From NCBI GenBank assembly GCA_019113175.1, contig DXHY01000058.1:1-34248 (forward strand): 34,248 nucleotides of DNA. The letters are read 5' to 3'. Made by a program: the position numbers and the translations under genes. The notes below the pieces were generated by a model, which worked only from the letters and a program-made list of their open reading frames with translations, made no database searches and was not told where the DNA came from. Source of the stretch: Candidatus Eisenbergiella stercoravium. GTDB taxonomy: Bacteria; Bacillota; Clostridia; Lachnospirales; Lachnospiraceae. Shown in pieces: positions 514 through 34,248 of this stretch (position 1 is its first letter; each line of letters opens with the position of its first letter).

Positions 514-523
514 TTTTACCTCC

Positions 524-670
524 ATGCCGAAGCGGTATGCTGAGGCCGCGAGGAGAAATCACGCAGGTGATTTCTCCTCTGCGATCACAGCAGTTTTGTG
601 CTTCGACGCAAAACTGCCACAAAGCTGGCTTTGTTTTGAAACAATAAGTCATCGGGCTTATTTTTCAATC
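524..670 (-). repeat. Class I hairpin array, copy a (leader of PNPOx-like gene)
   Basis: Read on the minus strand toward the gene, four hairpins follow one another: stem at 643-648/657-662 with a CGAT in its loop; 619-625/628-634 (acaaagc/gctttgt); 590-598/609-617 (gcagttttg/caaaactgc) with a loop containing gtcgaag; and 550-562/567-579, a 13-bp perfect stem with a 4-base loop. The array ends in gcttcggcatggagg, which runs straight into the ribosome site. Loop and linker sequence (for example ctgtgatcgcag) is shared with the copies at 18795-18910 and 33777-33909, while the stems differ. It fills about 150 bases of the 359-base gap between the PNPOx-like gene and the divergent DUF5722 gene. 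Confidence 0.75.
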
Positions 671-7968: not shown

Positions 7969-7976
7969 GCCTTTCC

Positions 7977-8078
7977 TTTCCGCCGCCACAGGGCGGCATT
8001 TCATCATAAAGAAATTGGCTGCAAAGCCAATTTCCAGCACGAACCATTGGTTCGTGCGCGCCGCCACAGGGCGGCATC
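7977..8078 (-). repeat. Class II hairpin array, copy a (leader of patatin gene)
   Basis: Read toward the patatin gene, the order is hairpin A (gccgcc/ggcggc at 8060-8075), a variable hairpin B (gcacgaacc/ggttcgtgc, 8037-8057, 3-base loop), hairpin C (gaaattggct/agccaatttc, 8011-8034), then a second hairpin A (7982-7997), whose right arm runs into the ribosome site. The array fills essentially the whole gap between the aminotransferase stop and the patatin start. Compared with 19984-20188, stem C differs by a paired change (ggct/agcc instead of ggcc/ggcc), meaning the pairing is conserved. Confidence 0.8.
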
Positions 8079-17238: not shown

Positions 17239-17316
17239 GGAAGGCGGCCTTTGGCCGGCTTCCTGGAAGAATCACTTCGTGATTCTTCTCTAATTTAAAT
17301 GCCGCCTCTCGGCGGC
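17239..17316 (+). repeat. Class II hairpin array, copy b (between pit and DUF47 gene)
   Basis: Three consecutive hairpins: 17239-17249/17253-17263 (11 bp, one mismatch), 17266-17275/17279-17288 (gaagaatcac/gtgattcttc, perfect), and the shared hairpin A gccgcc/ggcggc at 17301-17306/17311-17316. The last arm runs into the ribosome site AGAGG of the DUF47 gene. Only hairpin A is shared in sequence with the other class II arrays; the two upstream stems are unique. Confidence 0.75.
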
Positions 17317-17332
17317 GGAGAAAGAGGAAGAT

Positions 17333-18040: not shown

Positions 18041-18784
18041 TTAAACTTTGCACAGATCCCTTACAACCTCTCCCGCCAGGATCAGGCCTGCCGCTCCCGG
18101 CACAAACACCACGCTTCCTGGAACGGCGCGGCGGCCGGAAGCGGATGTCTGTGTTTTTTCTTCCGGCAGGGCAGCCTTCCCGCTGCCCGCTCCCGGCTTT
18201 ATGGCCTCCTCTCTGGAATACACCACCTTGAGCCGCTCCACCCCTCTGGCCTTCAGCTCCCGGCGCATCACGCGTGCGAGCGGACAGACGCTGGTCTGAT
18301 AAATGTCGGCGACCTCAAGCCGGGAAGCGTCCAGCTTGTTGCCCGCTCCCATGCTGCTGATGACAGGGACTCCAAAGCGGCGCGCGCGCAGAATCAGCTC
18401 CAGCTTGGCCGTTACCGTATCCACCGCATCCACCACATAATCCAGACCGCTGAAATCAAATTCCTCCGCGTTCTCCGGCAGGAAAAAGCATTCCCTCGTC
18501 TCCACCTCCGCATCCGGATTGATGGACAGAATCCGTTCCTTCATAACCTGCGTTTTATATCGTCCCACTGTATCCAGCGTGGCGATGATCTGACGGTTCA
18601 GATTAGACAGTGCGACCCGGTCGCTGTCCACCAGCAGAAAATGGCCCACGCCGCTTCTTGCCAGCGCTTCCACCGTATATCCTCCCACGCCGCCGATTCC
18701 GAATACCGCCACGCGGGCTCTTTCCAGACGTTCCACGCCTTCCTCACCCAGAAGAAGTGCCGTTCTTGCAAACTGTTCTTTCAT
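18041..18784 (-). CDS. tcdA: tRNA threonylcarbamoyladenosine dehydratase TcdA (HesA/MoeB/ThiF fold)
   Basis: This 247-residue E1-like ATP-dependent enzyme has the Rossmann glycine motif GIGGVG (29-34) and the downstream DSDRVALSNLNRQI and SSMGAGNKLDASRLEVADIYQT stretches typical of TcdA/CsdL. It cyclises the t6A modification at position 37 of ANN-decoding tRNAs. The C-terminus is slightly rich in Ala/Gly and ends VRDLCKV. GAGG lies six bases before the ATG at 18784. It is monocistronic here: a terminator follows it, and a class I hairpin array fills the gap to the araC-type gene upstream. Identity is confident from the fold and the conserved segments. Confidence 0.9.
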   Translation of the reverse strand: MKEQFARTALLLGEEGVERLERARVAVFGIGGVGGYTVEALARSGVGHFLLVDSDRVALSNLNRQIIATLDTVGRYKTQVMKERILSINPDAEVETRECFFLPENAEEFDFSGLDYVVDAVDTVTAKLELILRARRFGVPVISSMGAGNKLDASRLEVADIYQTSVCPLARVMRRELKARGVERLKVVYSREEAIKPGAGSGKAALPEEKTQTSASGRRAVPGSVVFVPGAAGLILAGEVVRDLCKV

Positions 18785-18794
18785 TCAAATCCTC

Positions 18795-18910
18795 ATTCCG
18801 GAGCGTAACGACGAGGCGATGCCTAAGGGCAATTTGTGACGCTCCGGCACATAATTGCAACAAAGCGAAGCTTTGCTGTAAAAAATAGGCCATCGGGCTT
18901 ATTTTTTACA
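18795..18910 (-). repeat. Class I hairpin array, copy b (leader of tcdA)
   Basis: Read toward tcdA: hairpin 1 at 18880-18891/18896-18907 (about 12 bp, one G.T pair, loop atcg/cgat), hairpin 2 at 18861-18866/18870-18875 (caaagc/gctttg), hairpin 3 at 18829-18858 (gcaatttgtg/cacataattgc, loop containing gctccg), then a less structured piece ending gctccggaatgagg at the ribosome site. Hairpin order and loops match copy a at 524-670; stem sequences differ. The T-rich arm of hairpin 1 also resembles a terminator for the upstream AraC-type gene. Confidence 0.75.
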
Positions 18911-18919
18911 TTATCTCCT

Positions 18920-19983: not shown

Positions 19984-20188
19984 TACGATTTGAATGCCGC
20001 CTCACGGCGGCGGAAAGGCGGGAAAAGCAGAGCTTTTCCCTGGAAATTGGCCTTGCGGCCAATTTCTTTACGATTTGAGTGCCGCCTCACAGCGGCGGAA
20101 AGGCGGGAAAAGCAGAGCTTTTCCCTGGAAATTGGCCTTACGGCCAATTTCTTTACGATTTGAATGCCGCCTCACGGCGGCGGAAAGG
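19984..20188 (+). repeat. Class II hairpin array, copy c: 85-bp tandem repeat before the GH88 gene
   Basis: Two complete 85-bp units start at 19984 and 20069, followed by a partial third from 20154 that ends at the GH88 ribosome site. Each unit contains hairpin A (gccgcc/ggcggc), hairpin B (gggaaaa/ttttccc), and hairpin C (gaaattggcc/ggccaatttc). Units differ at only a few positions. It fills most of the leader region between the divergent AraC-type promoter and GH88. Confidence 0.9.
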
Positions 20189-32836: not shown

Positions 32837-33776
32837 GAGCATACGGTATCCTGTGTCGTGCAGCGGTATTCTGTATTGTGCGGCACATCGTTCTATTTCC
32901 GGCACTGTCTTCAAGATTTTTTCCCATTATCTGTGTTTTTTCTTGCCTCAGCCGCCGGTTCGTATTAATGTAGATACACAGACAACAGCCGGAGTTCATG
33001 TTTCGTTTTTGCAGGAAAATCGATATGTTTCCCCTGTCAGCATAATGGAAGCTGAATTCTTCTGTTCCCATCTTTATGATTCATCTTTTTTCTATCATTT
33101 TCACCCGTTTCAGGTACATTTTTCAGACGAATGCTTTTTCATATATCCGTCTTTGTCGCTTTTTCCGCCTGTTGCGCTGTATCGGCCCCCCATTATAACG
33201 GCAGAAGATTCATATGGTTTTCCGGAAAGGAGTATCTTGGAAGACCGGAAAAGAAAAAAGGCCTCTGTTCCCGGCCCCACCACCACGAAAACCGCACCAG
33301 ACCGCGTTCAGCAGGCAGAGGACCTAGCCCTGAAAAATGCGGCCGCCTTCTTCGGCAACGCACTTCTGAAATATCCGGGGATTTCTCAGAGTGCCTCGGC
33401 TGTCATGCCCACAGAAATGATCCGCCTGGAGGTCCGGCACATGTATGAGGACTTTAATTTCCAGACTGCCGACGGCGCATGGCTGCATTTTGAATTTGAG
33501 AGCGAAACCCTTTCTCTGGCGGATCTGAAACGGTTCCGGGAGTATGAAGCGACCACCAGCCGTACCCATGAGGTAGCCGTTACCACCTGCGTCCTTTGCA
33601 GCGCCGGACAGAACAGCGTGAAAAATTCATTTCACGAGGGCATCAATACGTATCGGGTAAAACTGATCCGTCTGAAAAGGACATCGGACATGAGTGTCTG
33701 ACACGGATGCAGGCGCTGCTGTATGTTTTTGCGGGGAAGTTTTTAAACAAAGATGACTTGCAGAAAGTAAAGGAGG

Positions 33777-33909
33777 AAGGTTGAAAAACGCGCTCGATAG
33801 CGCATTTTTCAACCTGGATTTGTGCCGAAGCGTCACAAATTCTGTGATCGCAGCGCCGAATTGGAGATTCGGCGCGCGTGCTTCAGCGTAAAATGCTTCA
33901 ACAAAGAGG
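33777..33909 (+). repeat. Class I hairpin array, copy c, inserted in the rpn gene
   Basis: Removing exactly these 133 bases joins ...AAAGGAG to GTGATT... and restores a family-like frame KVKEVISMTILGEML. GAGG occurs at both ends (33773-33776 and 33906-33909), a possible 4-bp target duplication. Inside: hairpin 1 (33781-33812, 14-bp stem with one A/C mismatch, loop CGAT), hairpin 3 (33818-33824/33834-33840, atttgtg/cacaaat), hairpin 4 (33853-33861/33867-33875, gcgccgaat/attcggcgc). The linker ctgtgatcgcag is identical to that in copy a. Confidence 0.8.
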
Positions 33910-33917
33910 TGATTTCC

Positions 33918-34133
33918 ATGACGATTCTTGGCGAGATGCTGGTGAAAGACGGGCTCGATCAGGGCATTCGGGAGGGTTTGCAGCAGGGCATCCGACAGGG
34001 AATCAGACAGGGCGAGGAGAAGCTCGGACGTCTGATTCAGCTTCTGATTCAAAATTCCCGTTCTGATGAAATCAGCAGAGCGGTAACAGACAGGCAGTAT
34101 CAGGAAGCGCTGTATCAGGAATTCGGCCTGTAG
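33918..34133 (+). CDS. Small ORF, Rpn C-terminal segment
   Basis: This 71-residue frame begins MTILGEMLVKDGLDQGIREG, contains Gly/Gln/Arg repeats (GLQQGIRQGIRQGEEK), and ends ALYQEFGL, all as in the C-terminus of Rpn-type proteins. AGAGG stands eight bases upstream, so it could still be translated alone. In enterobacterial Rpn systems a short C-terminal product made from an internal start acts as an inhibitor of the full nuclease; by analogy this segment could be such a product, but that is inference. The hairpin array leaves it with a fresh leader. Confidence 0.5.
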   Translation: MTILGEMLVKDGLDQGIREGLQQGIRQGIRQGEEKLGRLIQLLIQNSRSDEISRAVTDRQYQEALYQEFGL

Positions 34134-34137
34134 GCCA

Positions 34138-34162
34138 GATAGGGGAAGTTCCTTCCCCTATC
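34138..34162 (+). terminator. Hairpin after the rpn remnant
   Basis: A perfect 10-bp stem gataggggaa/ttcccctatc (34138-34147 and 34153-34162) with a five-base loop starts four bases after the stop. No T-run follows, so termination is probable but not certain. The remaining sequence to the end shows a short hairpin (gggc/gccc near 34199) and no gene. Confidence 0.5.
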
Positions 34163-34248
34163 CGATCATGCGATGCGCACAGCTATCGGCCGTTTGCCGG
34201 GCTTATCGCCCAAAATCCTGCAACTCTCTGAGAACGTTTTCCTTCTTT

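What the first reader, a model, noticed from the sequence alone, without database searches (positions are those of the whole stretch)
33773..33909. A hairpin array has inserted into a nuclease gene at a Shine-Dalgarno-like site
Deleting 133 bases restores the frame KVKEVISMTILGEML in the rpn remnant, and GAGG flanks the insert on both sides. This is direct evidence that the array is mobile and lands next to an AGGAGG-like purine tract. If insertion is directed at ribosome sites, it explains why other copies sit immediately before start codons. The rpn family itself is linked to recombination, so the remnant may not be a random target.
Basis: partly seen in the sequence, partly recalled or inferred. 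Interest (0 to 1): 0.85.

Follow-up and report, generated by a model that had tools for sequence, protein, structure and literature searches.

The report
Hairpin element that invades ribosome sites
In some gut bacteria a small repeated stretch of DNA hairpins appears to have jumped many times into the short signal where ribosomes start reading a gene, ending up with a copy of that signal on each side, so the gene can probably still be read; here it sits inside a nuclease gene that has such a start signal in its middle.

Summary
Window 33777-33909 is a 133-base insertion in an rpn-type gene; relatives carry the uninterrupted site, G006:C169 exactly as predicted. The insert belongs to a large hairpin family (114 model hits in this genome) found in Eisenbergiella and patchily elsewhere. 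In 138 sampled copies, GGAGG lies within 14 bases before the first hairpin in 72, against 2-9 in windows further away; of 132 readable, 125 have GAGG or GGAG, ATG and an ORF after the array, against 23 of 128 control windows. Of 24 copies of this genome checked, 13 have an array-free counterpart. rpn is no odd target: rpn genes have an internal ribosome site for an intragenic antitoxin (PMC10327210, passages). Trees suggest repeated hits on that site: 2 changes in the window's rpn group, 6 in another. Best reading: a non-autonomous mobile element that lands at Shine-Dalgarno (SD) tracts and duplicates about GAGG plus 1-3 bases, leaving an SD before the gene. The enzyme is unknown; no Y1 transposase was found in this 95%-complete genome.

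The parts
33240..33769 (+). remnant of the rpn-type gene upstream of the array; also lacks about 169 bases compared with G006:C169
33770..33776 (+). left hinge AAGGAGG, the SD-like tract of the uninterrupted site
33777..33902 (+). inserted array (126 bases between the two hinges)
33779..33814 (+). hairpin H1, GGTTGAAAAACGCG..GCGCATTTTTCAACC; its inner part matches a terminator-like pattern
33818..33840 (+). hairpin H2, loop CCGAAGCGT (33825-33833)
   Evidence: for loop and family; direct reading for the stem (the lowest-energy fold pairs this stretch differently)
33853..33875 (+). hairpin H3, loop TGGAG
   Evidence: and direct reading
33894..33902 (+). strand just before the right hinge that pairs with the H2 loop in the family; in this copy 6 of 8 pairs remain (direct reading)
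   Evidence: for the family
33903..33909 (+). right hinge AAAGAGG, SD-like tract before the downstream start
33918..34133 (+). downstream ORF corresponding to the RpnS (intragenic antitoxin) part
   Evidence: Pfam no match at E<=0.01 for 33822-34130
519..670 (-). second copy of the family, before the gene read from 513 leftwards; left hinge AGGAG 679-675
18791..18911 (-). third copy, before ORF 18041-18784(-); array-free in G005 (L132)

Best explanation
The insert is one copy of a non-autonomous mobile element, usually about 100-165 bases, made of two constant hairpins, one or more variable hairpins and a 3' strand that pairs with the loop of hairpin 2. It inserts in one orientation into the SD tract in front of a start codon. 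A short stretch of target (GAGG and about 1-3 bases after it) ends up on both sides, so the upstream neighbour keeps its end and the downstream gene keeps an SD directly before its start. In rpn genes the target is the internal ribosome site of the intragenic antitoxin, so the insertion cuts the long nuclease protein but leaves the short antitoxin ORF with an SD. Shown by sequence: array-free and filled sites, SD-like tracts on both sides, orientation, paired structure. Inferred: that this is transposition, that an enzyme chooses SD tracts, that translation downstream really persists. Unknown: the enzyme. I think a trans-acting enzyme working on folded single-stranded DNA or on RNA is most likely, because the ends are not inverted repeats and the fold covaries.
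For: Array-free site exactly as predicted. Of 24 G000 copies checked, 13 have an array-free counterpart; in 11 of these the flanks meet within 5 bases of the projected joint, 9 of the 11 with GAGG or GGAG there; cleanest: TTCTTTAATGGAGGAAAAAGATG in G004 and G007 against TTCTTTAAATGGAGG-array-GGCATGGAGG-AAAAAGATG. GGAGG directly 5' of H1 in 72/138 against 2-9 in windows further off. GAGG or GGAG, ATG and ORF after the array in 125 of 132 against 23 of 128 upstream control windows. In 72 copies with GAGG on both sides the bases right of GAGG match the copy's own downstream bases more than other copies' (1.14 v 0.56, 0/1000; within genomes, 69 copies, 1/1000). Second rpn group: 8 filled (1 partial) and 30 empty in the tree, filled ones at the same internal site, 6 changes, at least 4 forced by starred branches. 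Window rpn group: 2 changes. Patchy spread: strong hits outside the genus only in G031 and G077 of another family among 116 genomes of the order. Loop-to-3' strand covariation: A-T 62, G-C 32, G-T 10, A-C 0 of 104 parsed.
Against: No transposase, autonomous copy or terminal inverted repeat was found. The left half of the repeat shows no excess identity once 15 copies with longer matches are set aside. Array-free sites before genes would hold an SD anyway, so the 9 of 11 is weak evidence for targeting; 2 of the 11 (L030, L033) have no clear SD, and 2 of 7 uninterrupted window-type rpn genes read GGGG instead of GAGG. Trees count changes, not gains; the second rpn alignment is short (242 columns) and the filled label there is only weakly clustered; gene conversion could mislead. 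The filled rpn copies of that group carry a recognisable sub-type, which could mean recombination between rpn copies rather than fresh insertion. In that sub-type the H2 loop no longer matches the 3' strand (direct reading).
Confidence: 0.78

Rival explanations
1. IS200/IS605- or REP-like element moved by a Y1 (HUH) transposase with GGAGG as target and as right cleavage site.
For: One orientation, hairpins near the ends, a short fixed motif 2-4 bases 5' of H1 in most copies, no inverted ends; REP hairpins carry a 5' tetranucleotide (PMC6006769, passages). Two of 19 Y1 loci show a weak likeness to the array's 3' end at a distance (L060 E 1e-4, L052 E 0.02).
Against: Y1_Tnp has 0 hits in G000, G002, G004, G005, G006, G007 and G011 (81-97% complete), all array carriers. 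Eleven of the 19 Y1 loci read by eye show no such ends. Y1 was not looked for in G031 or G077. Duplicated bases right of GAGG do not fit joining without duplication.
Confidence: 0.15
2. The arrays are old operon leaders, and the array-free sites arose by deletion between the two GAGG repeats.
For: Partial and solo remnants exist: L123, L128, L324, and the single copy in L112, so loss happens.
Against: In rpn the array-free state is an open reading frame shared by many paralogues and by G010; an ancestral array would require many exact losses. Patchy spread.
Confidence: 0.1
3. A cis-regulatory RNA (riboswitch-like leader) duplicated together with its genes.
For: Conserved pairing next to the SD with compensating changes, position directly before starts.
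Against: Downstream ORFs in the read-outs look unrelated to each other (by eye), no Rfam match at gathering scores, array-free orthologues.
Confidence: 0.07
4. Spread by recombination or template switching between existing arrays through the shared CGCTTCGGCATGGAGG end, without a dedicated enzyme.
For: 23 of 138 left flanks hold a 3'-end-like motif; 15 of 72 share 9 or more bases with their own 3' end.
Against: The other 57 of 72 share no more than chance left of GAGG; the uninterrupted rpn sites read have no such longer motif.
Confidence: 0.12

Closest known systems
BOX, RUP and SPRITE repeats of Streptococcus pneumoniae (PMC3049150, abstract and passages)
   Same: small, multi-copy, hairpin-forming, BOX with a variable number of inner modules; judged parasitic
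   Different: over-represented between convergent genes there; no SD targeting in the passages I read; here nearly all sampled copies precede starts
REP sequences and RAYT/TnpA-REP (PMC6006769, passages)
   Same: many intergenic hairpins with a short fixed motif at the 5' foot
   Different: motif there GT[AG]G and a Y1 enzyme in the genome; here GAGG and no Y1 gene found in G000
MITEs such as Correia, ERIC and RU elements (PMC2229807, abstract and passages)
   Same: under 200 bases, no protein, target duplication, transcribed structure
   Different: most have inverted ends and TA termini; here asymmetric ends and an SD hinge
TAACTGA repeats of Beggiatoaceae (PMC4679880, abstract and passages)
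   Same: repeats packed directly upstream of start codons
   Different: heptamer tandem repeats that overlap the site, with canonical SD rare; here folded arrays that carry the SD
Rpn genes with intragenic RpnS (PMC10327210, abstract and passages)
   Same: internal ribosome site and start inside rpn
   Different: no insertions at that site in the passages I read

Membership tests
MITE | terminal inverted repeats | tested here: not met
   ends GATTG... and ...CGCTTCGGCAT are not inverted copies (direct reading)
MITE | target site duplication | tested here: met
   GAGG plus 1-3 bases on both sides, own-copy match above shuffles; the left limit is not fixed
MITE | parent IS with the same ends in the host | tested here: inconclusive
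IS200/IS605 or REP/RAYT | Y1 HUH transposase in the genome | tested here: not met
   PF01797: 0 hits in G000 (95% complete), E. coli control positive
IS200/IS605 or REP/RAYT | short guide or target motif at the foot of a terminal hairpin | tested here: met
   the SD-like motif ends 2-4 bases before H1 in 89 of the 110 copies that have one; sequence differs from GT[AG]G
Group II intron or other Rfam family | match to an Rfam model at gathering score | tested here: not met
   0 matches in the window; weak TD-2 hits on both strands and one psbA-2 hit, below gathering
BOX element | boxA, boxB and boxC sequence modules | not tested
   no BOX sequences compared
Rpn gene with intragenic RpnS | in-frame internal SD and start codon, K-E..M geometry | tested here: met
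   KVKEVISM in G006 and KVKEAISM in G007; E. coli RpnA K240, E241, M244 (PMC10327210). Spacing differs by one residue
Rpn gene with intragenic RpnS | Rpn / PD-(D/E)XK family profile | tested here: inconclusive
   no Pfam hit for the two window fragments at E<=0.01; an intact relative was not scanned

The most novel reading that the evidence does not exclude
A class of bacterial mobile element whose target is the translation start signal itself. It recognises SD tracts, rebuilds the SD at its far end and so lives almost harmlessly in gene-dense operons. It acts as a portable 5' leader and splits genes-within-genes such as rpn into separate ORFs, moved by an enzyme not yet known. A second hairpin family in the same genome, often with SD-like tracts at both ends, suggests that the strategy arose more than once.
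Probability: 0.55. Interest if true: 0.87.

Novelty: new variant of a known kind. Interest (0 to 1): 0.76.

Why it matters
Selfish DNA in compact genomes needs safe landing sites; known ones include tRNA genes and terminators (recalled). Ribosome sites are among the most frequent shared signals in a bacterial genome, and an element that copies the signal it lands in would be a new solution. It would also explain why many genes of these gut bacteria have structured leaders, and it gives natural array/no-array pairs in which the effect of a leader on translation can be measured.

Tried and rejected
A conserved leader peptide: the array reads as an open frame after TTG in this copy (LKNALDSAFFN...), but the GTGTG sub-type has a stop directly after GTG (direct reading), so I do not take it as coding.

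A reverse transcriptase as mover: PF00078 hits occur in 13 of 15 genomes and do not track array number (G003 has 20 hits and no array hit; G031 has 15 array hits and no RT). Of seven fetched RT regions one, L380, showed an H1-like motif. Not pursued.

Phage or plasmid vehicle: no match in plasmids, no exact match of two H1 patterns in viral contigs. The one 'phage' record (MT838414.1, 70.7%) looks like a bacterial operon fragment from its ORFs.

TD-2 RNA: weak hits on both strands, below gathering; taken as hairpin likeness.

Literature: the listings showed no SD-targeted element. Listings were capped (for example 10 of 4,392 papers), and I saw titles and abstract starts; passages were read from five papers. 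Most subscription papers are not in that library.

Rows left out of counts. Copies touching a contig end were left out when sites were located, as were four named loci that repeat G005 copies. Of 142 copies collected, 138 were kept (full 40-base left flank, no N near the junction, flank not a near-duplicate). They are a sample of the best hits, not all hits. My first count of starts (126 of 138) used looser motifs, had no control, and for a few copies (L021, L032, L050, L071) took an inner motif instead of the true array end, as one search shows; I recounted with a control. There, of 138, 5 were too near a contig end and 1 held N; of 132, 126 had GAGG or GGAG, a start (125 with ATG) and an ORF. 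Of the 6 without, L236, L251 and L254 have GGGG then ATG, and L234, L295 and L029 are real exceptions. Control windows upstream: 52 of 128 with any start, 23 of 128 with ATG. One search left out L347, L333, L348, L335b and L323 of 43 rows; 5 of 126 without H2, 17 unparsed of 121. One search misplaced the joint of L314; one search gives the mended counts. A first tree failed for most rows through my pattern and is not used. Hit numbers include matches on both strands of a hairpin, and at most 150 candidates per genome were scored.

Full report
What is there. Window 33770-33909 holds AAGGAGG, a 126-base hairpin array and AAAGAGG, inside a damaged rpn-type gene. Folded as RNA, the stretch 33765-33925 gives -63.2 kcal/mol against a shuffled mean of -44.0 (z -5.2). 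A search of 41 genomes (own and relatives) with 33200-34248 found the flanks next to each other, without the array, in close relatives. Nine homologues had a readable left flank: seven uninterrupted, two interrupted, namely the window and G009:C96; two more showed only the right side. In two of the seven uninterrupted genes (G006:C46, G010:C13) the tract reads AAAGGGGG. The window gene also lacks about 169 bases further upstream compared with G006.

One event or two. The tree of nine rpn sequences, array columns left out, puts the window near G006:C169 (uninterrupted) and G009:C96 next to G007:C24 and C16 (uninterrupted). Holding the two interrupted genes together is rejected (p-AU 2.65e-63). 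So at least two changes are needed: two gains, or one gain with two or more losses. G010 and the paralogues are uninterrupted, which favours gains.

A second rpn group. Another copy (L032, G000:C55) also lay in an rpn-like gene (the label is from resemblance). Its upstream part matched many paralogues. I read the junctions at 42 fetched loci. Of 38 rows in the tree, 8 carry an array (one partial, L324) and 30 do not; five of 43 rows were left out. The seven complete arrays sit at the same internal site, GAGG before TGATCGCCATG or a close variant. The tree needs 6 changes, at least 4 forced by well supported branches. In the filled copies re-counted, the long frame stops 12-17 codons after the hinge (six loci; L308 equals L307 there); in the partial one it stays open. 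L314 already has a stop 11 codons before the hinge, so it was broken in another way too. The arrays in this group share a sub-type that ends in CGGAAAAGAGG or a near variant, so transfer between rpn copies is possible.

Why rpn. Zhong et al. (PMC10327210, abstract and passages) report that rpn genes encode a second, short protein, RpnS, from an internal ribosome site and start, and that it blocks the toxic long protein; changing K240, E241 and M244 of E. coli RpnA removes it. The uninterrupted relatives here have a similar motif, K-E-V-I-S-M or K-E-A-I-S-M, encoded by AAGGAGG(T/C)GATTTCCATG. So the apparent insertion into a gene is an insertion into a ribosome site like the others.

The family. 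A covariance model of the first two hairpins gives, at E<=0.01, 114 hits in G000, 135 in G005, 104 in G010, 147 in G002 and 86 in G006, fewer in G004, G007, G008, G009 and G011, one weak hit each in G001 and G012, none in G003 (both strands counted, 150 candidates scored per genome). An exact H1 match finds 29 stretches in named assemblies: four Candidatus Eisenbergiella species, an uncultured Eisenbergiella from chicken, an uncultured Lachnospiraceae and an uncultured Clostridia bacterium. Contig lengths tie several of these to G004-G008, so the window's genus is Eisenbergiella by inference. In 116 genomes of the order, 24 have some hit at E<=0.01, but besides G000 only G031 and G077, one genus of another family, have strong ones (best 1.7e-18 and 5.1e-17; the next best genome 3.2e-7). 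The ten further own-family genomes listed have none, though unlisted genomes may include more of that family. Outside that sample, G024 of the own family does hold a clear copy (L014). This patchiness fits horizontal spread.

Where copies sit. From 142 collected copies I kept 138. GGAGG lies in the 14 bases before H1 in 72 of 138, against 2-9 of 136-138 in nine windows further upstream; any of GAGG, GGAG or AGGA in 116 of 138 (sum of the table). After the array, of 132 readable copies 125 have GAGG or GGAG, an ATG 3-13 bases on and an ORF of at least 40 codons (or open to the end of the fetched stretch); control windows of the same width upstream give 23 of 128. Of the seven others, one has a non-ATG start, three have GGGG then ATG, and three are real exceptions. 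In a looser count the spacing was 5 in 91 of 126. Arrays that could be judged thus point the same way.

Filled and empty sites. I took 24 copies of this genome: 23 by joined flanks searched in six relatives and the window rpn. Thirteen have a relative in which both flanks align to within about 40 bases of the joint and the array is missing. In 11 of these the flanks meet within 5 bases of the projected joint; 9 of the 11 hold GAGG or GGAG there, L030 and L033 do not clearly. In the other two (L039, L042) a different spacer of about 20-26 bases stands there. Three more (L025, L026, L049) align only partly, and eight gave no pair. Since these sites precede genes, an SD is expected there in any case; the rpn sites are the stronger evidence. 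The cleanest pair is L041: G004 and G007 read TTTAATGGAGGAAAAAGATG, G000 reads TTTAAATGGAGG-AAGATTG...GGCATGGAGG-AAAAAGATG. The third window copy (18911-18791, minus strand) is empty in G005. Decay is visible too: L123 keeps only the 3' end and L128 has lost its middle.

What is duplicated. In 72 copies with GAGG on both sides, the bases after the left GAGG match the copy's own downstream bases over 1.14 positions on average against 0.56 in shuffles (0 of 1000 as high; 69 copies shuffled within genomes, 1 of 1000). To the left there is excess identity only in 15 copies with 9 or more identical bases; without them there is none. So the duplicated target is about GAGG plus 1-3 bases, and what precedes the right GAGG belongs to the element. 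The longer cases look like insertions next to an older array end.

The fold. The loop of hairpin 2 (CCGAAGCG) can pair with the strand just before the right SD (CGCTTCGG). At one variable position the 104 parsed copies show A-T 62, G-C 32, G-T 10 and A-C 0; at its neighbour A-T 99, G-T 3, G-C 1 and A-C 1. Relatedness inflates this. A distant copy in a human-gut record has CCGCAGGCG with CGCCTGCGG (direct reading). This window copy keeps six of eight pairs, and the rpn sub-type has lost the match.

How it may work. The ends are not inverted repeats, so a classic MITE is unlikely. Y1 transposases, which would fit hairpins and one-way insertion, were not found in this genome, in five other array-rich genomes (G002, G004, G005, G006, G007) or in G011 (assemblies 81-97% complete); they occur in G008, G009 and G010, which also carry arrays, and in G001, G003 and G012, which hardly do. 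Reverse transcriptases do not track the arrays. I commit to a trans-acting enzyme on a folded single strand or on RNA, with low certainty. H1 looks like a terminator in a consensus scan (3 such sites found in the stretch, 1.8 expected), so the array may also lower transcription into the next gene; that is untested.

Known or new. Small hairpin repeats are well known (BOX, REP, ERIC, Correia; passages), and repeats at start codons exist in Beggiatoaceae. Targeting of the SD with its regeneration did not appear in the listings, which were capped. I therefore call it a new variant of a known kind, with the mechanism open.

Noticed in passing
window 19984-20188 (+), 7975-8037 (-), 17289-17323 (+): A second hairpin family: GCCGCC..GGCGGC hairpin followed by GGAAAGG or GGAAAAGAGG, with inner hairpins; in several loci the hairpin-plus-SD-like unit stands at both ends, in the window as an 85-base tandem repeat, and a single unit also occurs.
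   Followed up: partly
L374 (G000:C88), L375 (G005:C29), L377 (G010:C69), L380 (G009:C154): A reverse transcriptase gene in an open frame of about 345-464 codons occurs in several array-bearing genomes of the genus; no link to the arrays shown.
   Followed up: partly
L324 (G008:C25): An rpn-like copy with a half-deleted array whose long reading frame stays open through the leftover hairpin.
   Followed up: no
L323 and L348: Two rpn-like copies of the second group look broken in other ways: an early stop, and a terminator-like hairpin right after the hinge.
   Followed up: no
MT838414.1 (L381): A record labelled Bacteriophage sp. holds what look like two cell-surface acetylation-type genes (label recalled) with a member of the array family between them; it may be bacterial DNA.
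   Followed up: partly
G000 contigs C13, C16, C19, C42, C68, C79, C81: Several contigs begin within or near an array, which suggests that near-identical recent copies break the assembly.
   Followed up: no
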